A stretch of 33,557 nucleotides of DNA, taken from Terriglobales bacterium. GTDB taxonomy: Bacteria > Acidobacteriota > Terriglobia > Terriglobales > Acidobacteriaceae. Positions 1,735-32,718 of this stretch are shown here, in pieces; within the stretch, counting starts at the first letter, position 1, and each line of letters starts with the position of its first letter. The notes below the pieces were generated by a model. That model had not been told where the DNA came from, ran no database searches, and was given only the letters and a program-made list of their open reading frames with translations. Both the position numbers and the translations under genes were made by a program. The stretch spans positions 1-33,557 of the forward strand of contig JASHOU010000064.1 of assembly GCA_030038475.1 (NCBI GenBank), written 5' to 3'.

Positions 1735-1825
1735 AGTCTGGTGGTTAGATTGCAGAGGTCAAGGCGCGATGCAGCAGAAATGCCCGAAAACTCGAGGCTC
1801 TCACCTCTACAATCTGACCTCTAAA
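1735..1825. repeat. Inverted pair of 7-bp-period arrays
   Basis: Five heptads at 1791-1825 (units such as CTCTCAC, CTCTACA, ATCTGAC, CTCTAAA) face a shorter set at about 1735-1765 in the opposite orientation. The best-matching arms, 1743-1759 and 1803-1819, pair over 17 bp with two mismatches around a 43-nt loop. The pair fills the gap between the DUF1572 and FGE-fold genes. It is not a classical terminator because no T run follows. Confidence 0.6.
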
Positions 1826-1834
1826 ATCGGGCCG

Positions 1835-2584
1835 CTATTCTAAGTTGCACGCCACTCTGAAGCCGTAGTCTGCGTACTTGAACTCCGGAGGAATGCTTGA
1901 CCGGGCCGCGCAGCGCGAGATTTTAATGTGGTGCCGCCACGATCCTCCGCGCGAAGCCCGCCGCGAGCCGCTTTCCGGTCCTCGCGGGTTGCGCTCCGGC
2001 GACACCGCATAATAATTGGCCGCATACCAGTCGCTGCACCACTCGTGCACGTTGTCACACATGTTGTAGAGACCGTATGCATTGCTTTCCCCGCGGCCCA
2101 CAGGTTCGGGGCCAGTTTTCCAGTCTCCCGCGCAACGATCGGCGTAATTCGCCAGCGCTTGCGGAGGCTCATCGCCCCAGGGAAACAGCGCGCCCTCGCG
2201 GCCTCCGCGCGCCGCGCGTTCCCATTCCGCCTCCATGGGTAAGCGAAAAGGTCTACCGCTGGCTGCGGTGAGCCATTCGCAGTAGGCAGCCGCTTCATAC
2301 CACGATACTCCCACCACAGGCTGCTCTGGATGGTTGAACGCGGGGTCATCCCAAAACGGCGGTGGAAGCGATGCGGTGCCCCGCAGGAAGCGTCCGTAGT
2401 CGGCGTTCGTCACCTGGTAGGCGGCTAAAAGGAATTCGTCAGTCCAGACACGATGCGCAGGCCTTTCGTTGTCTCGGCCGGTATCGCAGCCCATCAAGAA
2501 CCATCCCGCGGGAATGTGGACGAGTTTGGGAAGTTCTTCGACTCGCAGGAAGGAGAGCATTTGGGTTGAGGCTATTGGCTCCAT
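1835..2584 (-). CDS. FGE-sulfatase (SUMF1/EgtB) fold protein lacking the catalytic cysteines
   Basis: About 249 aa of formylglycine-generating-enzyme fold. Typical landmarks are present: IPAGWFLMGCD at the start, ADYGRFL, PVVGVSWYEAAAYCEWL, RLPMEAEWERAARGG, FPWGD, GLYNMCDNVHEWCSDWY, and RGGSW followed by YGFRVA near the end. True FGEs have two active-site cysteines just after RGGS(F/W/Y); here that stretch reads RGGSWRHHIKISRCAARS, with His in place of the first and no clear counterpart of the second. Sulfatase activation is therefore unlikely and another FGE-fold role is more probable. The ATG at 2584 follows the thiE stop by only 4 nt. A TTG at 2623, inside thiE, has a stronger ribosome site (AGGAG, 7 nt away) and would add 13 residues; the start is undecided. 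Confidence 0.82.
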   Translation of the reverse strand: MEPIASTQMLSFLRVEELPKLVHIPAGWFLMGCDTGRDNERPAHRVWTDEFLLAAYQVTNADYGRFLRGTASLPPPFWDDPAFNHPEQPVVGVSWYEAAAYCEWLTAASGRPFRLPMEAEWERAARGGREGALFPWGDEPPQALANYADRCAGDWKTGPEPVGRGESNAYGLYNMCDNVHEWCSDWYAANYYAVSPERNPRGPESGSRRASRGGSWRHHIKISRCAARSSIPPEFKYADYGFRVACNLE

Positions 2585-2588
2585 ATTG

Positions 2589-3269
2589 TCAGAGTGCCCG
2601 CAGCGCACGAACCACGTCCTCAATTTTATTCTCCTGGAACAGGCGAATGCCGGCCACTCCCGCCGCTCCCGCTTCCAGGCACGATGCGGCGTTCTCCATC
2701 GTGACTCCTCCCAGTGCGAGCACTGGGATTTTCGCGCTGGTGCAAGCTTCGCGCAACGCGGCCAATCCGGCAGGCTGCGCGCCGCCAGCGCCGGTTTTTC
2801 CGAATACCGGAGCGAAGACGACGAAGTCAGCTCGCTCGGACTCGGCGCGCAAGACGTCGGCTGTAGTGTGGCATGAGGCAGCGATCAGAAACTGGCGAGC
2901 CTTACCGTGATCGGAAGAAAGCTTGAGCACTCGCCGCACATCCTCTGCCGCAACATCGTCCGAGCGCAGATGAACGCCGTCGGCTCCCGCAGCCAGCGCC
3001 ACGTCGGTGCGGGAGTTGATAAGAAGAAAAGTTCTCGGTTCTCGGTTCTCAGTTCTCAGTGAAGCGCCGTTGCGCACAGCCGCCAGCGCATCTTTGGCCA
3101 GCGTTTCCAGATCTCTCGCGCTCAGATCCCTTTCGCGAAGCTGGATGTAATCGACGCCGGCACCCGCAGCTTCAGCGACTTTCGCGAGCAGCGCCCGACG
3201 GCGCGCGTTTTCGCCGCCGGGAAATTGGCTTCGGTCGGTGATGTAGTAGAGCAGAAAGCGGTGAGCCAT
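2589..3269 (-). CDS. thiE: Thiamine-phosphate synthase
   Basis: Joins HMP-pyrophosphate and thiazole phosphate to give thiamine phosphate in the cytosol. The 226-aa TIM-barrel protein shows the family signatures: YYITDRS, DYIQLRERDLS, LLINSRTDVALAAGADGVHL, the pyrophosphate-loop region with FVVFAPVFGKTG, and PVLALGGVTMENA with the phosphate-binding end GAAGVAGIRLF. Residues about 70-80 (SLRTENREPRT) are an extra loop between the helix ending AAVRNGA and the strand FLLINS. Relatives normally pass straight from one to the other, and this loop is encoded exactly by a heptad-repeat array. No other thiamine gene is nearby; the FGE-fold gene follows directly, so the two are probably co-transcribed. 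Confidence 0.92.
   Translation of the reverse strand: MAHRFLLYYITDRSQFPGGENARRRALLAKVAEAAGAGVDYIQLRERDLSARDLETLAKDALAAVRNGASLRTENREPRTFLLINSRTDVALAAGADGVHLRSDDVAAEDVRRVLKLSSDHGKARQFLIAASCHTTADVLRAESERADFVVFAPVFGKTGAGGAQPAGLAALREACTSAKIPVLALGGVTMENAASCLEAGAAGVAGIRLFQENKIEDVVRALRAL
3032..3059. repeat. Four tandem heptads inside thiE
   Basis: On the minus strand four 7-bp units (two CTGAGAA-like, then two CCGAGAA-like) run in tandem without interruption. They encode the extra loop of ThiE, residues 70-80. The same CTGAGAA unit recurs in front of ftsZ at 31310-31323. Confidence 0.8.
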
Positions 3270-3324
3270 CCATTCTCAGCCTACTACGAGATTCGCACCA
3301 TCTGGTTTGTACTATCGAGCCGGC

Positions 3325-4749
3325 TTATTTCTTGACGGCAACCTCAGAAGTCGGCGATCTCTCTAAACCCGAATACAGATTGGCCTGCTGACAAGGCGGC
3401 ATGAATAGTTTCAGGTTCTCCGCCTTCCAGCGCATGGAGGCGTAGATGCGATTTCGTCCGCTGGGGTGATCGAAAAAGATCCATTCCTCGATCGGACCCG
3501 GGTTCATCTTGCGGTATTCGCCAAGATGAATCGCCGCCTGTGCAAACCCGTCCGGCTGCCGCGCCGTGTTCAGCCCGAACATGTCGGCTTCGTACTCCTG
3601 CGTCCGCGTCGTAGTGTTGTTGATGGGCGTATAGAAGAAACCAAAAATAGAAACGAGCAGCACCACCAGCGGCAAAACTGCCGTGTCGCCGACGCCGCGA
3701 ATCTGCAATTTCTCGCCCCATCGCTGGAGCGCCCATCCCAGCCCCCAGTACAAGTAGGCGAAAGCCACCACAATCACGATCGAGATGAACGTGATGCCCT
3801 TGTAGATGTGGTTCATTACGTAGTGGCCCATCTCGTGTCCCATGACCGCTTGAATTTCCTCCGGTGAGCCACGGCGCAAAAGATTGTCGTTGAGCGTAAT
3901 GCGCATCGTATTGGCGAACCCACTCACGTTGGCGCTCATCCGCGTCGTTTGCCGCGAAGCGTCGATCTCGTACACGTCTTTAGCTGGGATTCCGTTGGCC
4001 CGCGCCATGCTCAGAATGGGGTCGACAATCTTCGGATCGTTGAGCCGAGTGACCTTATTGAAAATCGGAACGATGTAGACCGGCGCGATCAGCGCCGTGA
4101 AGATCCCAAACAGAATCGTCACCACCGCGCCCCAAATCCACCAGGTGCGCGAGAGCCGGCGAACAATACCGAAGAGAACCACCGCCAGGATGCCTCCCAG
4201 CACCAGCGCCACTCCAAGGCCTTTCAATTGATCCACCATCCACGGCCCGAAGGTTTGCGTAGCCAGCCCGTACTTGTGCTCGCGGAAATAATCTTCGTAA
4301 ACCGTCAGCGGAAAAACCATGATGGTAGTCAGAATCAGGTATTGCAACCAGTACACGAACGTGTGAACCGGCTTAAAACGGGTCACGCGCTCCGCCAGAT
4401 CTCTCATACGCGCCGACCAGCGTAAATTCAGCAACAGCAGGCAAACCACGACGCCGTAAAGAAAGTCCCAGAGAATCATCCAGTACCCGCCTTCAAAATA
4501 AGCGTCGGAACGCGCCATTTTGTCGGCTGGAATCTGCGCCAGATAAGCATTTGTCGCAGCAACCGCGTCGAAATGCTCCGACGGCTGCGCTTCAGGAGGA
4601 ACCTGGATCACCGACGGCATCTCGTTCGGTCCTGGTGGCTGTGCGAACGCCGCAGTGGCGGAAAACGCAGCGGAGAAAGTCGCACAAAGAATTGCGCAGA
4701 AAAAAATCGAGTTAGAGACTATCGCCCAAAATGCTCGTGAGGTCATCAT
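3325..4749 (-). CDS. M48-family membrane metalloprotease (Ste24/CaaX protease-like)
   Basis: A 474-aa zinc endopeptidase anchored in the membrane. A signal-like hydrophobic stretch (residues 8-36, ending ATAAFAQ) is followed by an M48 N-terminal region with transmembrane segments near 91-108, 131-150, 175-197 and 202-225. The catalytic motif is HEMGH at 305-309 and the third zinc ligand is Glu385 in EYEAD. Two more hydrophobic segments lie at about 319-340 and 357-375. This matches Ste24-type proteases rather than the shorter HtpX. Bacterial members are thought to act in membrane-protein quality control; CaaX processing should not be assumed. Two ATGs stand in tandem at 4749 and 4746, with GGAGGG 8 nt before the first. 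It is separated from its neighbours and probably has its own promoter. Confidence 0.88.
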   Translation of the reverse strand: MMTSRAFWAIVSNSIFFCAILCATFSAAFSATAAFAQPPGPNEMPSVIQVPPEAQPSEHFDAVAATNAYLAQIPADKMARSDAYFEGGYWMILWDFLYGVVVCLLLLNLRWSARMRDLAERVTRFKPVHTFVYWLQYLILTTIMVFPLTVYEDYFREHKYGLATQTFGPWMVDQLKGLGVALVLGGILAVVLFGIVRRLSRTWWIWGAVVTILFGIFTALIAPVYIVPIFNKVTRLNDPKIVDPILSMARANGIPAKDVYEIDASRQTTRMSANVSGFANTMRITLNDNLLRRGSPEEIQAVMGHEMGHYVMNHIYKGITFISIVIVVAFAYLYWGLGWALQRWGEKLQIRGVGDTAVLPLVVLLVSIFGFFYTPINNTTTRTQEYEADMFGLNTARQPDGFAQAAIHLGEYRKMNPGPIEEWIFFDHPSGRNRIYASMRWKAENLKLFMPPCQQANLYSGLERSPTSEVAVKK

Positions 4750-5363
4750 TGCGGTTTCCCTCCGGAAATGCAGACCAGTAGAAGTGTATACGCGGATCGG
4801 GTGTTCGAAGTTCTAGTCTTTCACCACGGAGTCACGGAGAACCCAACTCCTTGGCTGCATCTTCCATTTCTGGGTGTGTGAGGAGTTAAGGTCTTCTCTA
4901 CTCTGTTGCTCTGTAGGGAAAAGAGTCAAATTAAGATGCCACTCAGCAATAATGGCGCTTGACCGCCGACTCGCGGCAGAGGGCGATTGCACCTTCTGGT
5001 ACAAGCAAGAGTACAGCGACGGCGGCTTCAACTGGCAGTCGCACGTAATCTCGTTCAAGTTCACGAGCTGCGAATAACGGAAAATCAATCGTGACGTACA
5101 GCCCGCCCGCAACGGCAGTCTGTACCATGTTTACCGCTCTCGCTTCGGGTAGTGGAGGTTACAGGCCGGGCTGCACTTCGACGGGTTCAAGCTCGATTTC
5201 TGCCTTCCCCTACCAGAACGTCCTATATGGATCCTACGTTCGTGCCATTCCCCGGCTGGCGGCCAGGAAGTAGATTGGTGGTGAGCAGACTTCGGGGGAG
5301 GGCTGTTCGACGAGCGTCCGCTGACTCTAACCAGAGTCCGGGCGCTTTCGTTTTGTGGTGAGA
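4750..5363. other. 614-bp gap without a convincing gene
   Basis: The gap lies between the M48 protease start and the end of the reductase gene, both on the minus strand. It holds a class-2 repeat at 4820-4843 and a small hairpin at 5313-5346. A 61-codon minus-strand ORF (4943-5128) and a plus-strand ORF (4874-5077) exist, but neither has a ribosome site or a recognisable protein pattern. The promoter of the protease must lie near 4755-4850; I could not place it. Confidence 0.5.
4820..4843. repeat. Class-2 short repeat (CACGGAG type, period about 9)
   Basis: Contains CACCACGGAG followed by TCACGGAGAA. Related degenerate copies lie at 23339-23368 and, in the opposite orientation, at 26862-26891. 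I recognise the pattern as the loosely conserved 'accacagagacacagag' kind seen between genes in several environmental phyla. Confidence 0.45.
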
Positions 5364-6269
5364 TTAACCGCGAGCGGAATCTTTAGCCTTGAGGTCGGTC
5401 TTAGTCTCTGGCGGTTTTTTCTTCGGTTTCATCATCTGCCACTCCTTTTCCGTCAACTCTCGTCCCAGCGCGGTGAATTCGCCCGCGCCCTGCAGCCATT
5501 CGCCACCATCCATGGTTACGACATCCCCGTTTACATATCCTGAACCATCGCTGATCAGAAATGCGGCCAGATTGGCGAATTCTTCGGGTGTGCCGAAGCG
5601 TCCCAGAGGAATTCGTTTTTGGGCCGCATGTTCGAACTCTGCGCGCGGCAGCAGACGGGAGAACGCGCCCTCAGTCGGAATCGGCCCGGGTGCGATGGCG
5701 TTCATGCGAATGCCGCGGTCGCCCCATTCGACGGCCAGGCTCCGCGTAAGCGCCTGCACGCCGGCTTTGGCCACGGCCGAGGGTACAACATAAGCGGAAC
5801 CCGTCGTCGTGTAGGTGGTCGTGATGTTCAGCACCACGGCTGCATGGTTGGCGGCGAGCCAGCGCCGTCCGCACGCCAACGTGGTGTGCAGCGTTCCCAT
5901 CAGGACGATTCCAATGACCGATTGAAACGCGCCCAGCGAAAGCTCTTCGGTGCGCGCCAGAAAATTTCCTGCGGCGTTGTTCATGAGTACATCGAGCGGA
6001 CCGTCGGCCCAGATACTTGCGATCATGGCTTCAACCGCCGCGGCGTCGCGCACGTCGCAGGCGTGGGAGTGGATCTTTTTTGTTTCGCCGCTGCTCGCAA
6101 CGCGCTGGCTCAACTCCTGCACGGTTGCTGTCAGCACTTCCTGCCGGCGTCCGCAGATGTAAACTTCGGCGCCGAGTTCGAGAAAGCGCTGAGCTGATGC
6201 CTTGCCCAGTCCGGTGCCACCTCCCGTGATGAGGATGCGTTTGTTGTGGAGCAGATCATTGCGGAACAT
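5364..6269 (-). CDS. 2,4-dienoyl-CoA reductase-like SDR oxidoreductase
   Basis: An NADPH-dependent short-chain dehydrogenase of about 301 aa resembling the mitochondrial DECR1/peroxisomal reductases that remove conjugated double bonds during beta-oxidation of unsaturated fatty acids. Seen: the nucleotide-binding motif ITGGGTGLGKA, the NNAAGNF motif, and the segment TTTYTTTGSAYVVPSAVAKAG, which parallels DECR1 and supplies the catalytic Tyr and Lys in that family's arrangement. The block PGPIPTEGAFSRL and the end VTMDGGEWL with a GEF motif also follow DECR1. The ATG at 6269 was chosen because GGGAGG stands just upstream and it leaves the standard SDR start (MFRNDLLHNKRILITG). Longer in-frame starts up to 6407 would overlap queG and add sequence unlike the family. 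The lysine-rich tail (KPKKKPPETK) is probably flexible. Confidence 0.85.
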   Translation of the reverse strand: MFRNDLLHNKRILITGGGTGLGKASAQRFLELGAEVYICGRRQEVLTATVQELSQRVASSGETKKIHSHACDVRDAAAVEAMIASIWADGPLDVLMNNAAGNFLARTEELSLGAFQSVIGIVLMGTLHTTLACGRRWLAANHAAVVLNITTTYTTTGSAYVVPSAVAKAGVQALTRSLAVEWGDRGIRMNAIAPGPIPTEGAFSRLLPRAEFEHAAQKRIPLGRFGTPEEFANLAAFLISDGSGYVNGDVVTMDGGEWLQGAGEFTALGRELTEKEWQMMKPKKKPPETKTDLKAKDSARG

Positions 6270-6364
6270 TGGTCCTCCCATGGAGACAATCGCCGATTGT
6301 AACGGACCGGTTAGCAGGGTAGTTTTTACGTGGGCCTTGAAAGAGACGCTGCATGCCGGTGTCT

Positions 6365-7474: not shown

Positions 7475-7545
7475 GGTCGAATCAGCTTCCCGGATCCATT
7501 TCCTTGAATGAGGCTATCACTTTTGCGGAGACGATTCGGCAAGGA

Positions 7546-7585
7546 TTGCCGAGAGAGCCAAACTATGTATTACACTGTAGTGCAT
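7546..7585 (+). promoter_or_regulatory. Putative vapBC promoter with a 21-bp operator-like palindrome
   Basis: Positions 7565-7585 form an imperfect palindrome around the central C at 7575: half-site ATGYAYTACA against its complement, 8 of 10 pairs matching. It touches the vapB start codon (7584). A TTGCCG at 7546-7551 and TATTAC at 7568-7573 give a plausible sigma-70 promoter with a 16-bp spacer, so the message would have a very short leader. No ribosome site precedes vapB, which fits near-leaderless translation. The likely ligand is the VapB-VapC complex. Confidence 0.5.
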
Positions 7586-8280: not shown

Positions 8281-8323
8281 TCTGGCTGAAGAATGTTGGC
8301 GTGGGAGTGTCCGTCGTGCTGGG

Positions 8324-12802: not shown

Positions 12803-12828
12803 AAGGATTTACGAGTGGGTGCAAGAAA

Positions 12829-12854
12829 AGCGGCGGGCGAAGACGCCCGCCGCT
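12829..12854. terminator. Bidirectional rho-independent terminator
   Basis: A perfect 10-bp GC stem, GCGGCGGGCG (12830-12839) and its complement (12844-12853), encloses an AAGA loop; an outer A-T pair extends it to 11 bp. It is preceded by AAAA, so the minus strand continues with TTTTCTT. On the plus strand the hairpin is followed by TCCATTTT. It lies between the convergent kinase and aldehyde dehydrogenase genes and should serve both. Confidence 0.85.
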
Positions 12855-19326: not shown

Positions 19327-22320
19327 ATGGCCATCACCACGATTTCGGTGCGCGGCGCGCGCCAGCACAATCTGAAGAATATTGACGTCGAGATTCCTCG
19401 CAACACTTTGACGGTCATTACGGGTCTGAGCGGCTCGGGGAAATCCTCGCTCGCCTTCGATACGATTTATGCCGAGGGCCAGCGGCGCTACGTGGAGACG
19501 CTTTCCGCCTACGCGCGGCAGTTTCTCGACCAGATGGAACGGCCTGACGTGGATGCGATCGATGGACTGAGCCCTTCGATTTCGATCGAGCAGAAAACCA
19601 CCAGCCGCAGCCCGCGATCGACGGTCGGCACGATCACAGAAATCTACGATTATTTGCGGCTGCTTTACTCTTCGATTGGTGTGCCGCATTGCCCAAATTG
19701 CGGCAAGCCAATTACGCGGCAGACGGCCGAGCAGATTGTGCAGCGAGTTATGGCGCTTACACCCGATGACCGGGTGATGATTATGGCGCCCATCGTGCGC
19801 GGGCGCAAGGGCGAATTCAAAAAAGAGATGGAGAAGCTGGTGCAGCACGGTTTCTCCCGCGCGCGCGTGGATGACGAGCTAGTAAATCTTGAGGATGATC
19901 TGGCGCTCGACAAGCGCAAGAATCACACCATTGAAGTAGTCGTGGATCGATTGCTGGTGAAACCCGGCATCGAACATCGCCTCGAACTTTCGGTTGGGCT
20001 GGCGATGAAGCTCGGCGGCGGGCTGGTTCTGGTAGCGGTCGTCAACGGCGACGAGACGCTTTATTCGTCGCGGCTGGCGTGTCCCGATTGCGGCATCAGC
20101 GTTCCGCAACTGGAGCCACGCTCATTCTCGTTTAATAGCGCGTATGGAGCGTGCCCCGAATGTCACGGATTGGGGAGCCGATATGATTTGGATCCGGCGA
20201 AGGTGATCGTCGACTGGTCAAAGCCGCTGCTCGATGGCGGATTAGGCCCGGGATCGGGTTCGCAGAATCTGATCCGTGGTTTGCAGTTGGTCGCGCAGGC
20301 ATATGGCCTCGATTTGACGGCACCGTTCGAGAAATTTCCCGACAAGATTCAGAACCTGCTGCTCTATGGCGAGCCGGAGCGCGGAGGCCAGCGAGCGGGA
20401 AAGACAGGGTTTCTGGGAATTCTTGGGCATCTCAAGCAGAATCTTGAAGCGTCGACCTCCGATACCTATCGCGAATATCTGCTCGATTTCATGTCGGCGA
20501 CGGAATGTCCAGTATGCCACGGCAAACGTTTGCGTCCGGAAAGCCTGGCGGTGAAAATGAACGGGATGTCGATTGCGGATTTCACCGATCTTCCGATTGC
20601 GCGTGCGCTCGATGCCGCGCGCGCAATCAAACTGACGGGCAGAGAACTGACAATAGCGGGTCGGATTGCCCACGAGATCGCCGAACGGCTCGAATTTTTG
20701 CACAACGTTGGATTGGGCTATCTGTCGCTGGGGCGATCGGCGGCGACACTTTCAGGCGGGGAGGGCCAGCGCATTCGTCTGGCCACGCAGATCGGATCGA
20801 AGCTGCGCGGCGTGCTTTACGTTCTCGATGAACCTTCGATTGGTCTGCATCACCGCGACAACGGGCGTTTGCTGGCTGCGCTCGAAAATCTGCGCGATCT
20901 GGGCAATACGGTGCTGGTAGTGGAGCACGACGAAGAAACCATCCGCCGCGCCGATTATGTGATCGATCTTGGTCCCGGCGCCGGCCGTCATGGCGGAGCG
21001 CTGGTTGCGAGTGGAACGCCGACGGAGATCATGGCGGCTGCGGGCTCGCTGACTGGAGCGTATATTTCCGGACGGCAGAGGATCGCGATGCTCGATCAGC
21101 GGCGAAGCCCGAATGGAAAAGCCATCGCGGTTTTGGGCGCGCGTGAGAATAACCTGAAGAATCTCGATATCGTGTTTCCGCTCGGCGTGATGACCGTGGT
21201 CACAGGCGTTTCCGGTTCCGGCAAATCGACTTTGGTGAATGACATTTTGTATCGAGCGCTGGCGCGGCAGCTGTATCGTTCGCGCGAAGAACCGGGTGCG
21301 CACAAAGCCATCAGCGGCGCGGAGCTGATCGACAAAGTGATTCGCATCGACCAGTCACCGATTGGGCGCACACCGCGCTCGAATCCGGCGACGTACACGG
21401 GAATTTTTGCGGCGATTCGCGATTTGTACGCGATGCTGCCGGAATCGCGCGAGCGCGGATACAAGCCCGGACGCTTCTCGTTCAACGTCCCCGGTGGACG
21501 GTGTGAGGCTTGCCAGGGCGAGGGGCAGCGGCGGATCGAAATGAATTTTCTGCCCGACGTCTATGTGCAGTGCGAAGTCTGCGGCGGACGCAGGTATAAC
21601 CAGGAAACGCTCACCGTTTGTTACAACGGCTATTCGATTGCCGACCTGCTGGAGATGCCAGTGGCAGACGCGCTGAAGATCTTGGAGAACATTCCGCAGG
21701 TTAAGCAGAAGCTGCAAACGCTGGTCGATGTTGGCCTGGGATACATTCATCAGGGGCAATCTGCGGTGACGCTTTCGGGCGGAGAGGCGCAGCGAATCAA
21801 GCTGGCGCGCGAACTGGGCAAACGGCAAACGGGAAAGACGTTGTATTTGCTGGATGAGCCGACGACGGGTTTGCACTTCGACGACGTCCGCAAGCTGCTC
21901 GACGTGCTGCATCGGCTCACCGATCTCGGAAACACGGTCATTATTATTGAGCACAATCTGGATGTGATTCGGAACGCGGATTGGATTCTGGATCTTGGCC
22001 CCGAAGGCGGAGAAGAAGGCGGACGGATTGTTGCGCAAGGCACGCCCGAGCAAGTTGCGCGCGTGAAAAAGTCATATACAGGCCAGGCGCTGAGCGCCTA
22101 TTTCCATAGCTCGGAAAAGAATGGTTCAGACAAGAATGGCTCGGAGAAGAATGGCTCGCGCAGGAATGGCGCAAAGAACGGACACGAGAAAAATGGGACG
22201 GCGAAAAATGAACTGGCGAAGAGCGACGCATTGAGGGATAAGTCGGAGAAAAATGGAACGGAAAAAGATGGCTTAGTAAAAAGCGCGCTGACACCGGATG
22301 GCGCCGGAGAATCGGCGTGA
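19327..22320 (+). CDS. uvrA: Excinuclease ABC subunit A with a repetitive C-terminal tail
   Basis: DNA-damage recognition ATPase of nucleotide excision repair, working with UvrB and UvrC. The 997-aa protein has both ABC modules: Walker A GLSGSGKS at 33-40 and [10 protein letters not shown] in the second half, and signatures [12 protein letters not shown] and [12 protein letters not shown] each followed by a Walker B region ending LDEP. Zinc-finger cysteines are seen as CPDC with CPECHGLG, and CEACQGEG with [10 protein letters not shown]. The usual protein is about 940-950 aa; here some 65 extra residues follow SAYFHS. They consist of degenerate repeats of E/D-K-N-G-S/T (DNA unit of 15 bp), highly charged and probably disordered. 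The ATG at 19327 begins the conserved sequence; its ribosome site is weak. The stop overlaps the next gene's GTG. Confidence 0.97.
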
Positions 22321-23240
22321 ACTCACTGCCCAAAGATCTGCCCGAGGAGACGCCTGACAATACGCCCGGGGATACGCTCAACGCTACGACCGAGAATCGC
22401 ACGGCGCTGCCGCCGGGTATGGATACGACGCCGCGCGCCGAAGTCGGCCAGCCGTGGGAAATAGGTTCGGCTGAGCGTATTCCAGCTGCGATGATTTCCG
22501 CCGCGGTTCCAGATCCGGTGTGGAATGGCTGGGACATCGTTCGGCTCACGATACTGGCTCTGGTCGCGCTTTTCGTCGGCGTGTTTGCTGTATTATTCGC
22601 GGCGCACTTCTGGTTGTTTCCCAAGAGTGGGTTAGGCGATATCGCGCGCATGCCGTTGGTGATCGTTGCCGGACAATCGGTCGCGTACCTACTGATTCTG
22701 GCGTATATGTATGTTCTGGTGACGCGCGAGCGGCGGCGTCCCGATTTTTGGCGCGCCATTCACTGGAACTGGCCCGCGAATCTTTTGGCCTACGTGTTGG
22801 CGGGCTTTGTGCTGGCGGTGGGGCTGCAAGGCCTGGCGCATCTGTTGCCGATTCCGCGGCAGTTGCCGGTCGACGCCTTTTTTCAAACTTCGGCCGAAGC
22901 GTGGGCGCTAAGTCTCCTGAGCATTACGCTCGCGCCGCTGATGGAAGAGCTTTTTTTTCGCGGCTTTCTCTATCCCGTGCTGGCGCGGAGCATCGGCGTG
23001 CCAGTAGCCATTTTGCTAACCGCGTCCGGCTTCGCGGTGCTGCATGGCGCGCAGCTGATGTTCTCCTGGGGACCGGTGCTGGTGATTTTTCTGGTCGGCG
23101 TGGTCTTGACCATGGTGCGAGCGAAGACAAATTCGGTGGCTGCCAGCGTGGTGGTTCACATGGCCTATAACGGGACGATTTCTGTGGCTATGTTCGCGGC
23201 AACGGATGGATTCCGGCATCTGAACAAACTGAATCAGTGA
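22317..23240 (+). CDS. CPBP-family intramembrane metalloprotease
   Basis: A 307-aa membrane protein of the CPBP/Abi (type II CAAX protease-like) family. A hydrophilic N-terminus of about 70 residues precedes hydrophobic helices near 75-100, 112-136, 154-176, 195-208, 226-242 and 252-266. The glutamic-type catalytic motifs are complete: EE at 210-211 with Arg215 ([12 protein letters not shown]), His243 (VLHGAQL), and His281 with Asn285 (VHMAYNG). Such proteins cleave peptides or proteins inside the membrane, with roles from bacteriocin immunity to signalling; nothing here narrows that. It starts with GTG inside the uvrA stop (GTGA overlap), so it is translationally coupled to uvrA. A functional link to repair is not obvious. 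Confidence 0.88.
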
Positions 23241-23245
23241 AAAAG

Positions 23246-23449
23246 GCAGGTCTCATGTGTTAGGTCTTAGTTCTTAGTGTCAACCGAGTTGTGGCTTACC
23301 GGCGGCTTCCGAATTCGCATTGGGCGCAGAAAGGCGGAAACCACAGGGTACACGCGGTTCACGGAGCGAATCGGAGACTTAGTCGGAGTTGTCCTAAGAC
23401 CTAACATCTAATATGTGAGACCTAAGACCTGACACCTGATACCTGATCT
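23246..23449. repeat. Composite repeat: inverted heptad arrays around a class-2 repeat
   Basis: Five 7-bp units at 23246-23280 (TTAGGTC, TTAGTTC and similar) are matched in inverted orientation by eight exact-period units at 23394-23449 (consensus CTAAGAC/CTGATAC). The 113-bp spacer holds a class-2 repeat at 23339-23368. The right-hand array stops 3 nt before the pyrE ATG. The whole CPBP-pyrE gap consists of this structure. Confidence 0.75.
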
Positions 23450-23452
23450 TTC

Positions 23453-24052
23453 ATGTCTACTGCGCGACAAGAACTGTTGGAGATGCTGGCGCACCAATCG
23501 TTTCGCCTGGGCGAGTTTCAGTTATCATCGGGCGGGACCAGCGACTATTACATCGACTGTCGCACCACTACGCTCGACGCCCGTGGAGCGCAGTTGACAG
23601 GTCAAGTCTTTCTCGACGCCGTTCGCGAGCAGGGATGGGACGCTGAGGCTATCGGCGGAATGACGATGGGCGCCGACCCCATTGTTGTCGCGGTGGCTGT
23701 GACCAGCGGAACGCTGCACGGGTTTCTTGTGCGCAAGGCGGAAAAGCAGCACGGCACGGGACAGCGCATTGAAGGCTTCCGCGAAAAGGGCGCGCGGGTG
23801 GTGATTGTGGATGACGTCTGCACCACGGGATCGTCGACGGTGCAGGCGATTGAAGCGGCGCGCGAATTTGGTTTTGAGGTGATCGGCGCGTTGTGCCTGG
23901 TGGAGCGTCAGGAGGCGCGCGGGCGTCCGAATGTGGAGAAAGCTGCGTCGCCGGCGAGATTTATTTCGATTTTCACGGCGAACGATGTACGGAGAAAGCA
24001 TTTGGCGGCTGTCCCTAACAGCGAACGACTAGCGACCAAAACTAACGACTAA
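23453..24052 (+). CDS. pyrE: Orotate phosphoribosyltransferase
   Basis: Converts orotate and PRPP to orotidine monophosphate in pyrimidine synthesis. The 199-aa protein shows the N-terminal substrate region FQLSSGGTSDYYIDCR, the catalytic-loop region VRKAEKQHGTGQRIEG with its conserved Lys and His, and the PRPP-binding motif VVIVDDVCTTGSST. The family core closes with SIFTANDVR; the last dozen residues (NSERLATKTND) are encoded by a heptad-repeat array that runs over the stop codon, so the tail is probably neutral. The ATG at 23453 is the first start after the upstream array, and no ribosome site is evident. Other pyr genes are not adjacent; mtnA follows after 10 nt. Confidence 0.95.
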   Translation: MSTARQELLEMLAHQSFRLGEFQLSSGGTSDYYIDCRTTTLDARGAQLTGQVFLDAVREQGWDAEAIGGMTMGADPIVVAVAVTSGTLHGFLVRKAEKQHGTGQRIEGFREKGARVVIVDDVCTTGSSTVQAIEAAREFGFEVIGALCLVERQEARGRPNVEKAASPARFISIFTANDVRRKHLAAVPNSERLATKTND

Positions 24053-24062
24053 CGACTAACTC
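24015..24062. repeat. Heptad array spanning the pyrE stop and ending at the mtnA start
   Basis: Seven tandem units, six of 7 bp and one of 6 bp, with consensus CTAACGA. The last unit ends immediately before the mtnA ATG at 24063. The pyrE stop codon (24050-24052) lies inside the array. Confidence 0.8.
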
Positions 24063-26799: not shown

Positions 26800-26861
26800 G
26801 ATCGTGAACGCCGGAGATCGCTGACCGCGCCAGGAAATTTCAGAAGACCAGCTTAAGGTTT

Positions 26862-26891
26862 CCTCGGCGCTCTCTGCGTCTCGGCGGTGAG
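26862..26891. repeat. Class-2 short repeat, reverse orientation
   Basis: CTCTCTGCGTCTCGGCGGTGA and flanking bases follow the period-9 pattern of the copies at 4820-4843 and 23339-23368. It fills the middle of the murG-murC gap. Confidence 0.4.
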
Positions 26892-26911
26892 ATCGTCTAT
26901 CATCAGTTCTC

Positions 26912-28342: not shown

Positions 28343-28473
28343 CAGGCTGAAGATTCTTAGTCGAACATCCGACATTTAGATCAGTGCGAACCTAATTGAC
28401 ACTGTTTCCGTTGGCGAAAAGCGGTTATAGTATTTGTGCTCTGCGGTTTTCTGTCGACAACTGACTCGAACCA

Positions 28474-29928
28474 TTGGCGCGGAAGTCGAGTACCAGCGCG
28501 GTGCAGGAAGAATTGTATCCGCATGGCAGCGATATTTCCGAGCATCAGGCTCGGGAAAGCCAGGCTGCCACGCGCGAACTGTTCGACGACGCGCGTCTTG
28601 TCGATCTGGAAATGGAGCAGGAATCTCCATTTCTGCGCGGACAAAAGCGAGTTTCCGTCCGGCGCGGTTCCCTTCCCAAAAAGACGGCTACGCGGTTGCT
28701 GTCGGTGGTTGCGGCCCTGGTCGCGCTGGCGATTCTCGGAGCTGCCGGGATGGGTCTCTATCGCTACGGCGAGCGCTGCTGGCGTTTTCGCATCGATTCG
28801 AGCGACCAGATAGAAGTGAGCGGCTCGGAGCACGTCACCCATCCGCAAATCATGGAAGTGATGGGAGGGGATATTGGCCGCAACATTTTCTTCGTTCCGC
28901 TCGCGCAACGCCAGCTGCAGCTGGAGCAAATTCCGTGGGTGGAATCGGCCAGCGTGATGCGCTTTGTGCCAAACCGGCTGCGCATTGTGATTCAGGAACG
29001 CACTCCGGTGGCATTCGTCCGAATCGGCTCGCATATTTCGCTGATCGACGCCGGTGGAACGCTGATGGAGCTTGCGCCGGGAGGCAAGCAAAAGTATTCG
29101 TTTCCCGTAATTGCGGGGATGAACGCGGGCGAGCCGCTCTCCACGCGCGCGGCGCGGATGAAAAACTACAACGAGCTGGTTCGTGAACTCGATTCGGGAG
29201 GCGCGCACTATTCGCAGGAATTGAGCGAAGTGGATCTGAGCGATCCCGAAGATGTGAAAGTGCTTTCCTCCGATGCGAATGGCGAAGTGCTGGTGCATTT
29301 GGGTTCGGAAAATTACTTGCAGCGATACAAGACGTTCGTGACCCATGCGCAGCAATGGCGGCAACAGTTCGAGAAGCTGGATTCGGTGGACCTGCGCTAT
29401 GACGGGCAGATTATTGTGAATCCCGATCTTGCGGGCATGACGCGGCAGCCGGCGCTGACTCCAGCTGCGGCCAAGGCGGCGATGGCGGCGGGAGTGAAAA
29501 CCGCGGCGATCGTGAATTACGAAAAATATGCTATCCATCCTGCGGCGGTTTCGGCTAAGCCGGCCAAGAAGGATGCGAAGCTGAAGACGAAATCTGCGAC
29601 GAGGTCCGCAGCGCGCCGTAGTTCAACTAAATCGAGTGCGGCGAAACCGGCTGCGGCTAAGGCGATTCCAGTTAGGCCCGCTCCAATTCAACAAAATTCG
29701 GCGAAACAAAATCCAGCGCAACCAAACTTAGCAAAACCAAATTCAACTCCTGCAGCGACGGTTAAGCAGGCGGCGCTGAAAGAAAACGATAGCGCGGCGA
29801 CGACGAAATCCGCGAACGCGCCGAAGAATACTCCGCCGGCGCAGCCAGTTACGCCCGCACCCGCCGCGGTTGGCGTGGGGCAGAAGAAACCGACCGCTGG
29901 AATTCCAAAGGAGACGCCGCCGCACTAA
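28474..29928 (+). CDS. ftsQ: Cell division protein FtsQ with a long low-complexity tail
   Basis: Bitopic divisome protein linking early and late division proteins. A charged cytoplasmic N-terminus (1-72) is followed by one transmembrane helix at about 73-96 (ATRLLSVVAALVALAILGAA), then a POTRA domain from about 108 (DQIEVSGSEHVTHPQIMEVM) containing PWVESASVMRFVPNRLRI, and the FtsQ/DivIB beta domain with RYKTFVTHAQQW and SVDLRYDGQIIVNPD. From about residue 320 to 484 there is a Lys/Ala/Pro/Gln-rich tail (units like SAKQNPAQPNLAKPN) that most FtsQ proteins lack; it would lie in the periplasm and may bind the cell wall. The start is a TTG at 28474 with no clear ribosome site and is uncertain. 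The usual murB and ddl genes are not between murC and ftsQ. Confidence 0.88.
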   Translation: MARKSSTSAVQEELYPHGSDISEHQARESQAATRELFDDARLVDLEMEQESPFLRGQKRVSVRRGSLPKKTATRLLSVVAALVALAILGAAGMGLYRYGERCWRFRIDSSDQIEVSGSEHVTHPQIMEVMGGDIGRNIFFVPLAQRQLQLEQIPWVESASVMRFVPNRLRIVIQERTPVAFVRIGSHISLIDAGGTLMELAPGGKQKYSFPVIAGMNAGEPLSTRAARMKNYNELVRELDSGGAHYSQELSEVDLSDPEDVKVLSSDANGEVLVHLGSENYLQRYKTFVTHAQQWRQQFEKLDSVDLRYDGQIIVNPDLAGMTRQPALTPAAAKAAMAAGVKTAAIVNYEKYAIHPAAVSAKPAKKDAKLKTKSATRSAARRSSTKSSAAKPAAAKAIPVRPAPIQQNSAKQNPAQPNLAKPNSTPAATVKQAALKENDSAATTKSANAPKNTPPAQPVTPAPAAVGVGQKKPTAGIPKETPPH

Positions 29929-29943
29929 GGGTTCAGTTTCAGA

Positions 29944-29975
29944 AGAACGAACGATTATAAGAACGCACGATCATA
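29944..29975. repeat. 16-bp tandem duplication before ftsA
   Basis: Two adjacent 16-bp copies (29944-29959 and 29960-29975) agree at 14 positions; unit AGAACGMACGATYATA. They lie 16 bp upstream of the ftsA start. Confidence 0.65.
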
Positions 29976-29991
29976 TTTACTCTGTTAATTT

Positions 29992-31212
29992 ATGCCGGCT
30001 CACATACCCAGTTTCATCACCACGATCGACGTAGGCAGCGCCAAGACTGCCGTGCTAGTGGCCGAGTTGAGCGAGAACGGATTGCGCTATCGCGGCCACG
30101 GCATCGGCGAATCGCGCGGCCTGCGCAAGGGCGTGATCACCGAACTCGACAAGGCGGTCGGCAGCATACAGAAAGCCGTGGAACACGCGGAGGACGTGGC
30201 GGGGATTCCGATCGAGCATGCGCTGGTGGGGATTGCCGGGGCGCACATCCGAGGGATGAACAGCCACGGCGGAATTACTTTTGGCTCGCGATCGCGCGAG
30301 ATCGGACGGGAAGAAATCCGCCAGGCGGTGGATAAGGCGCGCACCGTGCCGTTGCCCGCCGACCGCGAAATTCTTCATCTGCTGCCGCAGGAGTTCATTC
30401 TCGACGATCAGCCGGGAGTGCAGGATCCGACCGGCATGATGGCCACGCGATTTGAAGTGCGGGTACATATTGTGACGGCTTCATCGAGCGCCACGCAGAA
30501 TCTGATTACGGCGGTGAACAAAGCCGGAGTGCACGTGGACGATACGATTTTTGAGCCGCTGGGCGCGGCGGATTCGGTGTTGCGTTCGGACGAACGCGAA
30601 CTGGGCGTTTGCCTCATCGATCTCGGAGCCGGGTCGTGCGATCTGATCGTTTTTCAGCAGGGCGCGGTGGCGCATACGGCGGTGATTCCGATCGGCGGCG
30701 ACCACTTTACGAGCGATCTTTCGGTTGGAATGTGCACTGGCCTGGCGGACGCGGAAACGCTGAAGAAAAATTTCGGCAACGCGGTTCCGACGCTGATTCC
30801 GCAGGGCAACGAAGTTGAGGTACCGTCGGTGGGAGACCGTCCGTCGCGCATGATGCCGCAGCGTTTGGCGGGCGAGATTTTGGGGCCGCGCGCTTACGAG
30901 CTTTTTGAGTTGCTGCGGGAAAACCTGCGTCACGCGGGCGTTCTCGAGCACTGCATTGCCGGATTCGTGCTGAGCGGCGGAGCTTCGCGGCTTCCAGGAA
31001 TTCTCGACGTGGCGGAATCAGTGCTGCGCAAAGCGGCGCGTTTGGCGTGGCCGGCGCCGATGGCAAAGATGCCATCATTTCTTGCCGAGCCGGAATTTGC
31101 GACGGTGCTGGGCATGGCGTATTACGGTCACCGTTCCCGCCTAGCACGCGGGTTGCAGGAGCCGGGGCTTGGTTCGCGCATGAAAGCTTTGTTTGCGCGG
31201 AAAGGCGCGTAA
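29992..31212 (+). CDS. ftsA: Cell division protein FtsA
   Basis: Actin-like ATPase that ties FtsZ filaments to the membrane. The 406-aa protein shows the actin-fold phosphate-1 motif TTIDVGSAKTAVLV, the 1C-domain region ALVGIAGAHIRGMNSHG, the phosphate-2 motif LIDLGAGSCDLIVF, and the adenosine motif GFVLSGGASRLPGI. The C-terminal GLGSRMKALFARKGA can form the amphipathic helix that binds the membrane. Length is typical. The ATG at 29992 begins just before the family's first strand. It follows ftsQ after 63 bp and precedes ftsZ by 130 bp, the standard order. Confidence 0.96.
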   Translation: MPAHIPSFITTIDVGSAKTAVLVAELSENGLRYRGHGIGESRGLRKGVITELDKAVGSIQKAVEHAEDVAGIPIEHALVGIAGAHIRGMNSHGGITFGSRSREIGREEIRQAVDKARTVPLPADREILHLLPQEFILDDQPGVQDPTGMMATRFEVRVHIVTASSSATQNLITAVNKAGVHVDDTIFEPLGAADSVLRSDERELGVCLIDLGAGSCDLIVFQQGAVAHTAVIPIGGDHFTSDLSVGMCTGLADAETLKKNFGNAVPTLIPQGNEVEVPSVGDRPSRMMPQRLAGEILGPRAYELFELLRENLRHAGVLEHCIAGFVLSGGASRLPGILDVAESVLRKAARLAWPAPMAKMPSFLAEPEFATVLGMAYYGHRSRLARGLQEPGLGSRMKALFARKGA

Positions 31213-31302
31213 GAGAAGAACGAGCGAGGATTGAGCATGTGCAGCTTTCTGGAAGAGCAGCTCCTTCGCTTCGCTCAGGTGAATTTTGTGGTTTGGTTTT
31301 TG

Positions 31303-31337
31303 CTGAGGGCTGAGAACTGAGAACTGGTTTGTGAGGT
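31303..31337. repeat. Heptad array in front of ftsZ
   Basis: Five 7-bp units (CTGAGGG, CTGAGAA twice, CTGGTTT, GTGAGGT) run up to 5 nt before the ftsZ ATG. The last unit supplies the GAGGTG ribosome site. The CTGAGAA unit is the same as that inside thiE. Confidence 0.65.
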
Positions 31338-31342
31338 GAATT

Positions 31343-32620
31343 ATGACTGACGATAAGGGACTCCGCATTTCGTTCCATGAAGAAGCGCGCAACGACGCTC
31401 GCATCAAGGTCATCGGCGTGGGCGGCGGCGGCAACAACGCGGTCAATCGCATGATTGACTCGGGGATGGAACATATCGAATTCATTGTGGCCAACACCGA
31501 CTTGCAGGCTCTGCGCATGTCTCGCGCGGGCACGAAAATTCAATTGGGAGTGAAGCTGACGAATGGACTTGGCGCTGGCGCGAATCCTGAGATCGGACGC
31601 AAAGCCGCGCTCGAGGATTCGGACAAGATCATTGAAGCGCTCGAAGGTGCGGACATGGTCTTTGTCACCGCCGGGCTCGGCGGCGGCACTGGGACGGGCG
31701 CCGCGCCGATCATCGCTTCGCTGGCCAGTGAGATGGGAGCGCTCACCGTCGCGGTGGTTACCAAACCGTTCGCTTTTGAAGGCAAACGCCGCATGCAGCA
31801 GGCCGAGCGCGGCATAGCCGAACTGATGGAGTCAGTCGATACCACGATCGTGATCCCCAACGAAAAACTGCTGGCCGTCGCGGAGAATGCGGGATTTTTC
31901 GAGTCTTTCCGCATTGCCGACGATATTCTTCGCCAGGGAGTGCAGGGCATTTCCGACATCATCACCATTCCGGGCATCATCAATCGCGATTTTGCCGACG
32001 TAAGAGCGATCATGGCGGGAATGGGCTACGCGGTGATGGGGACGGCTACTGCTTCGGGTGAGCATCGCACAGTGGAAGCGGCGCAACGCGCGATTGCCTC
32101 GCCGCTGCTCGAAGCGGGCGCGATCGACGGCGCGCGCGGCATTCTGATCAACATCACCGGATCGAATTCGCTGAAGCTGGCCGAGGTGCAGCAGGCTTGC
32201 ATCATCATTCAGGGAGCGGCTCACGAAGATGCCAATATTATTTTTGGCGCAGTTCTGGATGAAAAGATGAAAGAGTCGGTAAAGATCACGGTGATTGCGA
32301 CAGGATTCAGAGAATCAGGAATGCGGCGTTCGCGGCATTATGACAATTTCGATCCGGTCATAATCTCGCGGGAGGTATCGAGGACGGCGCGGGACGATTT
32401 CGACGATCCCGAGCCTATCGCGGAGCCAGAGCCGGTATTCGAGCCGGAGCGAGCTGGTGAGACCGATCCCGCGCCGGTAGCTTTTCAGGAGCCGGCGGCG
32501 TTCGCGGCATCGCACGCGAGCGAGGTAATTTCGCTCGATGCGATGCGGGCGGCTCCCAGCTATCCGGCTGAAGATCTCGACATTCCAGCGTTTCTGCGGA
32601 AACGCAGCGAAATCATGTAG
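31343..32620 (+). CDS. ftsZ: Cell division protein FtsZ
   Basis: Tubulin-like GTPase forming the cytokinetic ring. The 425-aa protein has the N-terminal GTP region [15 protein letters not shown], the tubulin signature GGGTGTG at 113-119, the T7 synergy loop [12 protein letters not shown] that completes the active site of the next subunit, and the C-terminal subdomain with [15 protein letters not shown]. After residue 325 an acidic, Pro/Glu-rich linker ([16 protein letters not shown]) leads to the conserved tail [11 protein letters not shown], which binds FtsA and other partners. GAGGTG stands 5 nt before the ATG at 31343. It closes the division block; an inverted octad pair follows. Confidence 0.98.
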
Positions 32621-32630
32621 GAAAAGACAG

Positions 32631-32716
32631 GTTTTCAGAGTTTCAAGGTTTCGAAGTTACCCACCAGGAAACATGCCCTTTCCCTTGCAACCCTGAAACG
32701 TTGAAACCTTGCTTTG
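32631..32716. repeat. Inverted pair of 8-bp-period arrays after ftsZ
   Basis: Octads at 32631-32662 (AGTTTCAA, GGTTTCGA and similar) face octads at 32685-32716 (CTGAAACG, TTGAAACC) in the opposite orientation, 22 nt apart. The arms share CAAGGTTTC and its complement. The structure is like the inverted heptad pairs elsewhere but with a period of 8. Confidence 0.65.
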
Positions 32717-32718
32717 CG

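What the first reader, a model, noticed from the sequence alone, without database searches (positions are those of the whole stretch)
1735..32716. Inverted pairs of strict-period tandem arrays in several gene gaps
In three gaps (1735-1825, 23246-23449, 32631-32716) a degenerate tandem array with a 7-bp (once 8-bp) period is matched by a second array in opposite orientation around a spacer. The unit sequence differs from gap to gap (CTCTACA, CTAAGAC, GGTTTCAA types) while period and layout are kept, as if structure, not sequence, is under selection or generated by one mechanism. Cyanobacterial STRR heptamers are a known parallel, but not as facing pairs. They could act as long RNA hairpins, recombination sites, or products of a templated process.
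Basis: seen in the sequence. Interest (0 to 1): 0.72.

Follow-up and report, generated by a model that had tools for sequence, protein, structure and literature searches.

The report
Facing seven-letter repeat arrays between genes
Some soil Acidobacteria carry, in many gaps between neighbouring genes, mirror-image pairs of short 7- or 8-letter tandem repeats whose spelling changes from gap to gap and species to species while the layout stays, which looks more like fast DNA-copying turnover than a conserved RNA signal.

Summary
Gap 23241-23452 is a facing 7-mer pair and gap 32621-32720 a facing 8-mer pair; gap 1718-1839 is an inverted repeat without a 7-nt period. In samples of five genomes (four of the genus, one of the class), intergenic lag-7 arrays number 99 against 0 in shuffles. 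Two arrays in one gap are inverted in 149 of 172 gaps, direct in 16, tied in 7. They favour co-directional genes. In the S10-spc-alpha ribosomal operon, 228 of 306 gaps of 40 nt or more carry arrays in 18 genus genomes, shuffled 10.8; sister genome G022 has 1 of 23. At the same gap, two species share the unit family in only 29% of pairs. An array also sits inside the thiE coding gene, with no partner arm. Arm mismatches show no G.U excess (254 G.T, 238 A.C), though that test has no positive control. I favour DNA-level turnover (slippage plus inverted template switching). Facing heptamer pairs are already published for Xanthomonas: new variant of a known kind. Function and any trans-factor remain open.

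The parts
23247..23274 (.). gap 2 first (T-rich) arm, AGGTCTC-type heptads, 6 nt after the upstream stop codon
23393..23447 (.). gap 2 second (A-rich) arrays, CCTAAGA/CCTGACA-type heptads; 23418-23445 pairs with the first arm; ends 5 nt before the pyrE ATG
32623..32650 (.). gap 3 first arm, AGGTTTCA-type octads, 2 nt after the ftsZ stop codon
32689..32715 (.). gap 3 second arm, CCTTGAAA-type octads
1743..1759 (.). gap 1 left arm of a 17-bp inverted repeat; not 7-periodic
1803..1819 (.). gap 1 right arm; Tandem Repeats Finder gives period 14 over 1799-1828
3030..3060 (-). heptad array (ACTGAGA... on the sense strand) inside the coding sequence of a thiE-like gene, about residues 70-80; no facing partner seen in the gene
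24024..24060 (+). ACTAACG-type heptad array overlapping the last codons and the stop codon of pyrE
31302..31326 (+). unpaired second-type array (CTGAGAA), 16 nt before the ftsZ start codon; no hairpin found in that gap
22317..23240 (+). CAAX prenyl endopeptidase (Rce1-like) gene, upstream of gap 2
23453..24052 (+). phosphoribosyltransferase gene downstream of gap 2; Pfam gives Pribosyltran, the name pyrE is my reading
31343..32620 (+). ftsZ (Tubulin and FtsZ_C domains), upstream of gap 3
32709..33359 (+). TMEM175-like gene, downstream of gap 3 (start codon uncertain; this ORF start overlaps the second arm)
1130..1717 (-). DUF1572/DinB-type gene beside gap 1
1835..2560 (-). FGE-sulfatase-type gene beside gap 1 (start codon uncertain)

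Best explanation
These are fast-turning-over heptad/octad tandem arrays maintained at the DNA level. A short array grows and is homogenised by slippage or unit-to-unit conversion of 7-8 nt. Polymerase template switching across a transient hairpin rewrites one arm from the other, so a second array in the same gap is inverted and of the same unit family. Canonical SbcCD, the nuclease that attacks DNA hairpins, is rarely detected in the relatives searched, which would let such hairpins persist. Selection mainly decides where arrays are tolerated: just after a stop codon between co-directional genes, less often between divergent or convergent genes, and occasionally in frame inside a gene. SHOWN here: existence, excess over shuffles, inverted relation, family match of arms, location rule, family change at orthologous sites, fast divergence of arms and spacer, near-absence in one sister genome, an array in a coding gene. 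INFERRED: slippage, template switching, the role of SbcCD absence and the lack of an essential function.
For: Arms of one gap match as inverted copies: mean score 26.9 against 11.9 for arms permuted between gaps and 8.5 in direct orientation; 27% of pairs exceed the 95th percentile of the permuted scores. Inverted beats direct in 149 of 172 gaps, direct in 16, 7 ties; at score 24 or more it is 109 to 1. No RNA-strand signature: 254 G.T against 238 A.C mismatches in 203 periodic tandem-gap hairpins, p=0.5. Arms are 0.47-0.69 identical between the six closest species pairs (spacers 0.20-0.51), while gap flanks are 0.70-0.82 and third codon positions 0.79-0.81. The same gap in two species has the same family in 29% of 677 pairs, different gaps of one species in 12% of 995, different gaps and species in 6% of 13728. 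An array sits in coding DNA: thiE has one in 16 of 21 genus genomes (by eye), of three unit types, and an empty site in 5. Called genes hold 15 lag-7 segments against 0-4 for lags 4, 5, 8, 10, 11, 13 and 16, and 12 for lag 14, the harmonic. In ribosomal gaps G022 has 1 of 23 with an array against 228 of 306 in the other 18 genomes, shuffled mean 10.8, yet keeps a residual lag-7 signal of 0.300 against 0.254 shuffled. SbcD model TIGR00619: 1 of 101 relatives over cut-off, no match in the own genome; 13 of 14 named control genomes ring, 8 over cut-off. SbcC Walker B PF13558: 5 of 101 over cut-off, no match in the own genome; 12 of 14 controls. Template switching is reported to homogenise inverted-repeat arms in yeast (PMC8604942, abstract).
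Against: Unit order is not clearly mirrored between arms: excess 1.46 with standard error 0.65, only 7 of 43 in the top 20% of orders; recent arm-to-arm copying should leave mirrored order. The G.T/A.C test lacks a positive control: ordinary, non-periodic hairpins show no significant excess either (tandem 59 to 48, p=0.33; convergent 24 to 24), and 8 periodic convergent hairpins lean the other way (6 to 19, p=0.015). Location bias is stronger than plain tolerance predicts: tandem 82 of 630 gaps, convergent 7 of 137, divergent 8 of 173. The T-rich arm comes first in 112 of 172 gaps, the reverse in 6, which a symmetric process does not explain. Occupancy of about 75% of ribosomal-operon gaps is high for neutral DNA. 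SbcD-like genes do not clearly track array counts: p=0.07 and 0.12. The thiE arrays keep similar length although slippage by 7 would break the frame.
Confidence: 0.45

Rival explanations
1. Intercistronic RNA hairpin. The pair folds in the mRNA right after the stop codon and insulates cistrons, couples their translation, or protects or processes the message; sequence is free so long as the arms pair.
For: Location between co-directional genes, T-rich arrays a median 5 nt after the stop. High occupancy of the ribosomal operon. Family match of arms. Predicted folds better than shuffles for gap 1 (z -3.1 on the gene strand, -2.2 on the other) and gap 3 (z -2.2 and -1.6). A-rich arrays towards the start codon.
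Against: No G.U excess (but no positive control there). Gaps whose two arrays do not pair, such as rplB-rpsS, by eye in 7 of 18 genomes. An array inside thiE without a partner. G022 lives almost without arrays. The 150-nt piece of gap 2 lacking the first arm folds worse than most shuffles (z +1.4; the full gap was not folded).
Confidence: 0.29
2. Binding sites for a repeat-reading protein on RNA or DNA, as proposed for the TAACTGA repeats of Beggiatoaceae.
For: Fixed 7- or 8-nt spacing. A recurrent C-Y-R-R core in second arrays (CTGA 238, CTAA 60, CCAA 44, CTAG 42, CCAG 21, CTGG 19, CCGA 15, CCGG 4). TAACTGA repeats contain the same CTGA-NAA heptad, also close to start codons (PMC4679880, sections 7, 9 and 10).
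Against: Unit families differ widely, octads included, at the same gap. I saw no motif common to all families. Arms diverge faster than flanks.
Confidence: 0.1
3. Transcription terminators.
For: Inverted repeats after stop codons. Some spacers begin with an A-run and end with a T-run: AAA in the first 10 nt of 25 and TTT in the last 10 of 21 of 74, against 5 and 12 the other way round.
Against: Convergent gaps, where ordinary hairpins are enriched (29 of 97), are poor in periodic pairs (4 of 97; tandem 63 of 491). Arrays fill the interior of the ribosomal operon.
Confidence: 0.06
4. Mobile palindromes of the REP/BIME type moved by a Y1 (RAYT) transposase.
For: Y1_Tnp count per Mb correlates with array matches per Mb (Spearman 0.48 over 101 genomes, 0.57 over the 75 at least 90% complete).
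Against: Four genomes with 20 or more array matches have no Y1_Tnp match (two of them under 85% complete), and seven with 4 or more Y1_Tnp have 0-2 array matches. Only 2 of 20 Y1_Tnp loci have an array nearby against 0.23 of random windows. Array counts also rise with genome size (Spearman 0.46).
Confidence: 0.04
5. Three-frame translation stop cassettes: period 7 or 8 shifts a TRA stop codon through all frames.
For: Second 7-mer arrays have stops in 2.04 frames on average, shuffled 1.65.
Against: Only 64 of 138 second 7-mer arrays stop all three frames; one family (TTCGTCG) lacks stops in its usual units (reading); arrays occur within reading frames.
Confidence: 0.03

Closest known systems
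GGGAATC / GGGGA(C/T)T heptamer repeats of Xanthomonas and Nostoc (PMC4692102; passages and sections 10, 13, 16 read)
   Same: Heptads with variable positions; mostly intergenic; close to the upstream gene; mostly between co-directional genes, few divergent; some inside genes; 70 and 75 facing pairs in two Xanthomonas genomes; [quoted passage not shown] no function found.
   Different: There one G-rich unit able to form G-quadruplexes. Here many unit families, octads too: 0 of 344 arrays have four GGG or CCC runs, and the family at one gap changes between species. The shared anatomy without G-tracts suggests that quadruplexes are not the cause of the layout (inference).
TAACTGA direct repeats of marine Beggiatoaceae, some Cyanobacteria and Bacteroidetes (PMC4679880; abstract, outline and sections 7, 9, 10 read)
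   Same: TAACTGA repeats contain the CTGA-NAA heptad found here; in the Beggiatoaceae genome they mostly end shortly before a start codon, like the second arrays here.
   Different: There 169 direct sets and one inverted repeat in that genome; one main unit; related heptamers rarely repeated.
STRR heptanucleotides of Calothrix and other cyanobacteria (Calothrix heptanucleotides mentioned in a PMC4692102 passage; the STRR name and the rest recalled)
   Same: Several heptameric tandem families.
   Different: Facing pairs not described in what I saw.
REP/BIME palindromes with RAYT transposases (PMC3733652, search listing only; RAYT link recalled)
   Same: Extragenic inverted repeats, many copies.
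   Different: No tandem units; a linked transposase, and that link failed here.
Rickettsia palindromic elements (recalled; only search listing)
   Same: Repeats that also sit in frame inside coding genes.
   Different: Longer palindromes of defined families, not tandem heptads (recalled).

Membership tests
Bacterial heptameric tandem repeats (STRR / Xanthomonas-Nostoc type) | tandem units of 7 nt in excess over chance in intergenic DNA | tested here: met
   lag-7 99 real against 0 shuffled over own, G015, G007, G003 and G097 samples; lag 8 24 against 0
Bacterial heptameric tandem repeats (STRR / Xanthomonas-Nostoc type) | close to the stop codon of the upstream gene, mostly between co-directional genes | tested here: met
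   43 T-rich arrays, median 5 nt after the stop (upper quartile 73.5); tandem 82 of 630, divergent 8 of 173, convergent 7 of 137
Bacterial heptameric tandem repeats (STRR / Xanthomonas-Nostoc type) | facing pairs | tested here: met
   149 of 172 two-array gaps inverted, 16 direct, 7 ties
Xanthomonas/Nostoc G-quadruplex heptamers | G-tract in the units, four or more for a quadruplex | tested here: not met
   0 of 344 arrays have four or more GGG or CCC runs; 292 of 344 have none
REP/RAYT | linked to Y1_Tnp (RAYT) genes | tested here: not met
   2 of 20 loci against 0.23 baseline; 4 array-rich genomes without Y1_Tnp match
REP/RAYT | short palindrome with GTAG or CGTC tag | not tested
   tags not searched; arms are tandem arrays instead
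Intrinsic terminators | enriched between convergent genes, not inside operons | tested here: not met
RNA-level conserved hairpin | G.U preferred over A.C at arm mismatches on the sense strand | tested here: not met
   254 against 238; no positive control, since ordinary hairpins showed no significant excess either (59 against 48)
RNA-level conserved hairpin | hairpin formed and processed in vivo | not testable with these tools
   no RNA data

The most novel reading that the evidence does not exclude
A dedicated trans-acting system (polymerase, recombinase or reverse transcriptase) writes or rewrites heptad/octad arrays, unit by unit and preferentially as facing pairs, into gaps after stop codons and sometimes into genes. 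The array-poor sister genome G022 would be a natural knock-out in which old arrays are decaying.
Probability: 0.1. Interest if true: 0.88.

Novelty: new variant of a known kind. Interest (0 to 1): 0.58.

Why it matters
Heptameric repeats are over-represented in several bacterial groups, and the papers I read give only a polymerase-footprint idea for why seven (PMC4692102). Here the same anatomy appears without G-quadruplex runs, with many unit families that replace one another at fixed sites, including the ribosomal operon and a coding gene, and with a sister genome that has nearly none. That makes the question testable: is the period set by the replication machinery or by a reader of the repeats? 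It also warns that intercistronic inverted repeats can be abundant and positionally conserved without showing an RNA-level signature.

Tried and rejected
Three-frame stop cassette: attractive because 7 and 8 are not multiples of 3, but only 64 of 138 second 7-mer arrays stop all frames.

REP/RAYT origin: rejected by flanks and by array-rich genomes without a Y1_Tnp match.

SbcCD as the switch: canonical SbcCD is missed by two models in nearly all of the 101 relatives, so its absence may be permissive, but it does not explain which genomes have arrays. The weak SbcD-like hit in G022 looks like a lone phosphoesterase among unrelated genes, as read from a 4.5-kb contig without a family search.

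Mirrored unit order as proof of arm-to-arm copying: seen in single examples (G097, rows; G006 pyrE gap), but not as a rule.

A shared spacer sequence: only a weak A-run/T-run tendency.

Errors corrected on the way: the first lag table counted three all-N contigs (corrected in 17); the first pyrE listing left reverse-strand loci unturned (corrected in 29); the listing was cut in the middle, full counts are. One search gave 229 arrays over 306 gaps because one array gap was shorter than 40 nt; the recount is 228. On that check I also noted that the G.T/A.C test has no positive control, and lowered the best explanation from 0.48 to 0.45 and raised the RNA rival from 0.27 to 0.29. Genes were called by my own crude finder, so starts and some gap classes are approximate, and some arrays 'in genes' may be gene-calling errors or ordinary coding sequence; only thiE was checked by homologues. 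The 76 'periodic' hairpins include a few short palindromes that pass 0.5 by chance.
Full report
WHAT IS IN THE WINDOW. The window is a contig of a 4.46-Mb, 98.4% complete genome. The closest PyrE homologues in named records are Terriglobia / Acidobacteriaceae metagenome-assembled genomes, up to 87% identical. Gap 23241-23452, between a CAAX-protease gene and a pyrE-like gene, holds a facing pair of 7-mers. Gap 32621-32720, after ftsZ, holds a facing pair of 8-mers. Gap 1718-1839 holds a 17-bp inverted repeat without 7-nt period. The hairpin scores of gaps 1, 2 and 3 are reached by 14, 2 and 8 of 1000 dinucleotide shuffles.

GENOME-WIDE EXCESS. In 583.5 kb of the own genome, lag-7 segments at threshold 12 number 24 against 1, 0 and 0 in three second-order Markov copies. 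Lag 15 is higher still (33), but lag-15 segments are mostly in genes (15 of 50 intergenic at threshold 10), where lag 7 is mostly not (31 of 39 intergenic). In intergenic DNA of five genomes, lag-7 segments total 99 against 0 in dinucleotide shuffles, and lag 8 totals 24 against 0. Hairpins of score 20 or more occur 211 times in 736 intergenic regions against 63 in shuffles. In the class of score 30 or more, the letters of the arms repeat at lag 7 (with 8, 14 or 16) above other lags in four of five samples; G003 shows no peak. In the class 20-30 the peak is clear in G015, shared with other lags in own, G007 and G003, and absent in G097. The pattern CTRAN3 x4 occurs in 71 of 101 relatives and 128 of 297 genomes sampled from the phylum; the own genome has 42+33 against 2+2 for the reversed control. 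The control is rarer in the genus, but some other genomes are richer in the reversed motif.

ANATOMY. Of 745 co-directional gaps of 50-400 nt (samples plus ribosomal loci, G022's ribosomal gaps included), 172 have two or more arrays, 145 have one and 428 none; shuffled gaps give 0.2, 23.4 and 721.4, and lags 9 and 10 together give 2, 31 and 712. In the 172, the two outer arrays are better inverted than direct copies in 149, direct in 16 and tied in 7; the T-rich array comes first with an A-rich one second in 112, the reverse in 6; the rest are mixed. The median distance between arrays is 27 nt. The 43 T-rich arrays lie a median 5 nt after the stop codon, upper quartile 73.5. Gaps with an array: tandem 82 of 630, divergent 8 of 173, convergent 7 of 137 (Fisher p 0.0015 and 0.0076). 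Ordinary, non-periodic hairpins show the opposite preference, 29 of 97 convergent against 79 of 491 tandem.

SAME PLACE, DIFFERENT SPELLING. Upstream of pyrE, 14 of 23 genus loci (own genome included; the 24th genome had only a fragment) show a facing pair by eye. Unit types include AGGTCTC, AGTTCTC, AGCTCTC, GTAGCCA and GTGACCT; the rest have one arm, a cut contig, a degenerate gap or none. After ftsZ, 5 of 21 loci show a facing pair by eye (L105, L109, L114, L115, L119); many others have a different neighbour or another hairpin. In the wider set of named genomes, 10 of 65 loci upstream of pyrE have a hairpin of score 20 or more with lag-7/8 fraction of 0.45 or more; several of these are the same genomes. 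In G015 a run of neighbouring array gaps turned out to be the str-S10-spc-alpha ribosomal operon; Pfam confirms ten of its proteins (L2, S3, L16, L3, EF-Tu, S7, RpoA, S4, SecY, S5), the other names are my reading. In 18 genus genomes, 228 of 306 gaps of at least 40 nt in that operon carry an array, 10.8 in shuffles, and 186 do at a stricter threshold, 0.4 in shuffles; per genome this ranges widely, for example 20 of 21 in G008 and 10 of 23 in G020. First arrays of the same gap in two species belong to the same family in 29% of 677 pairs, against 12% for different gaps of one species and 6% for different gaps and species. Some gaps keep two arrays of different families that cannot pair: rplB-rpsS has 8-mers first and 7-mers second in 7 of 18 genomes by eye (low-scoring pairs listed).

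INSIDE GENES. The thiE-like gene of the window (TMP-TENI domain) contains a heptad array at about residues 70-80. Of 21 aligned genus homologues, 16 carry an array there by eye and 5 do not (G020, G011, G012, G015, G022). In three carriers the unit is of another family: G023, G013 and G008. Over the samples (G022 included), lag-7 segments in called genes number 15, against 0 to 4 for lags 4, 5, 8, 10, 11, 13 and 16; lag 14, the harmonic, has 12. The last codons and stop of the window's pyrE lie in an ACTAACG array; the full-length genus matches reach residues 185-195 of 199. No facing partner was seen in thiE, so persistence does not need a hairpin.

DNA OR RNA. If pairing in the mRNA were selected, arm mismatches should favour G.U over A.C on the sense strand. 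They do not: 254 against 238 in 203 periodic tandem hairpins, with 555 other mismatches. But ordinary hairpins give no significant excess either (tandem 59 to 48, convergent 24 to 24, divergent 16 to 25), so the test has no positive control here, and 8 periodic convergent hairpins give 6 to 19 (p=0.015). Between the six closest species pairs the arms are 0.47-0.69 identical and the spacers 0.20-0.51, against 0.70-0.82 for flanks, 0.65-0.80 for gaps without an array and 0.79-0.81 at third codon positions. Arm agreement in family is strong on average (26.9 against 11.9 permuted), but unit order is not convincingly mirrored, so the copying model is only partly borne out. RNA folds of gaps 1 and 3 are better than shuffles (z -3.1 and -2.2 for gap 1, -2.2 and -1.6 for gap 3). 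The 150-nt piece of gap 2 without its first arm is not (z +1.4).

A SISTER NEARLY WITHOUT ARRAYS. G022, same genus and 95% complete, has no CTRAN3 x4 match, no periodic hairpin in 115 intergenic regions, 2 intergenic lag-7 segments in 29.5 kb and an array in 1 of 23 ribosomal gaps. A map-infA pair with lag-7 0.69 is still visible, and residual periodicity remains (0.300 against 0.254 shuffled). Its ribosomal gaps are of broadly similar length to the others, some shorter. This looks like decay, and shows that the arrays are not essential.

CANDIDATE FACTORS. SbcD (TIGR00619) passes its cut-off in 1 of 101 relatives and matches weakly in 22 more. SbcC Walker B (PF13558) passes in 5 of 101 and matches weakly in 13 more. 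Of 14 named control genomes, 13 and 12 ring. SbcD-like genomes (E at most 1e-9, 9 of 101) do not differ significantly in array counts. Y1_Tnp correlates with array density (Spearman 0.48) but is not always present and not adjacent.

PRIOR ART. PMC4692102 (passages and sections 10, 13 and 16 read) describes GGGAATC heptamers in Xanthomonas with a similar location rule and 70 and 75 facing pairs; it also cites a slippage idea for the choice of seven. PMC4679880 (abstract, outline, sections 7, 9, 10) describes TAACTGA sets near start codons. PMC8604942: abstract and outline only. My searches listed no paper on such arrays in Acidobacteria; only the listed top results were seen, and the library lacks most subscription journals.

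VERDICT. The finding is real, widespread and structured, but facing heptamer pairs are already on record. The new parts are the many families with no G-tracts, family turnover at fixed sites, the load in the ribosomal operon, the in-gene copy, the symmetric mismatch pattern and the near-free sister genome. I commit to DNA-level turnover at slightly under even odds, with an RNA hairpin role as the main rival.

Noticed in passing
L172-L236, just upstream of pyrE: A promoter-like TGnTATCGTAGAAATTTC stands directly before the pyrE ATG in many of the Terriglobia loci; it suggests a leaderless message. It is not visible in the window's own copy, where the array runs up to the ATG.
   Followed up: partly
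window 3030-3060: Heptad array inside a thiE-like coding gene, with empty sites in 5 of 21 genus homologues.
   Followed up: yes
window 24024-24060: The C-terminal codons and stop of pyrE are array-encoded.
   Followed up: partly
ribosomal operon gaps of several genomes among L272-L289; ftsZ 3' gaps L108, L116; pyrE gap L096: Other hairpin repeats, such as GTAGAGACGCGGCTTGCCGCGTCTCTAC and GGCATCGCTAAAGCGATGCC types, replace the arrays in the same gaps in some species.
   Followed up: no
101 relatives: Canonical SbcCD is missed by the SbcD and SbcC Walker B models in nearly all of them.
   Followed up: partly
L187 (SbA1), L195 (Sulfotelmatobacter), gap before pyrE: Single-orientation heptad arrays (GTCCGAG / GTCTGAG) without an obvious partner arm.
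   Followed up: no
G000 contigs C50, C170, C200: These contigs read as all N and were left out of the counts.
   Followed up: no
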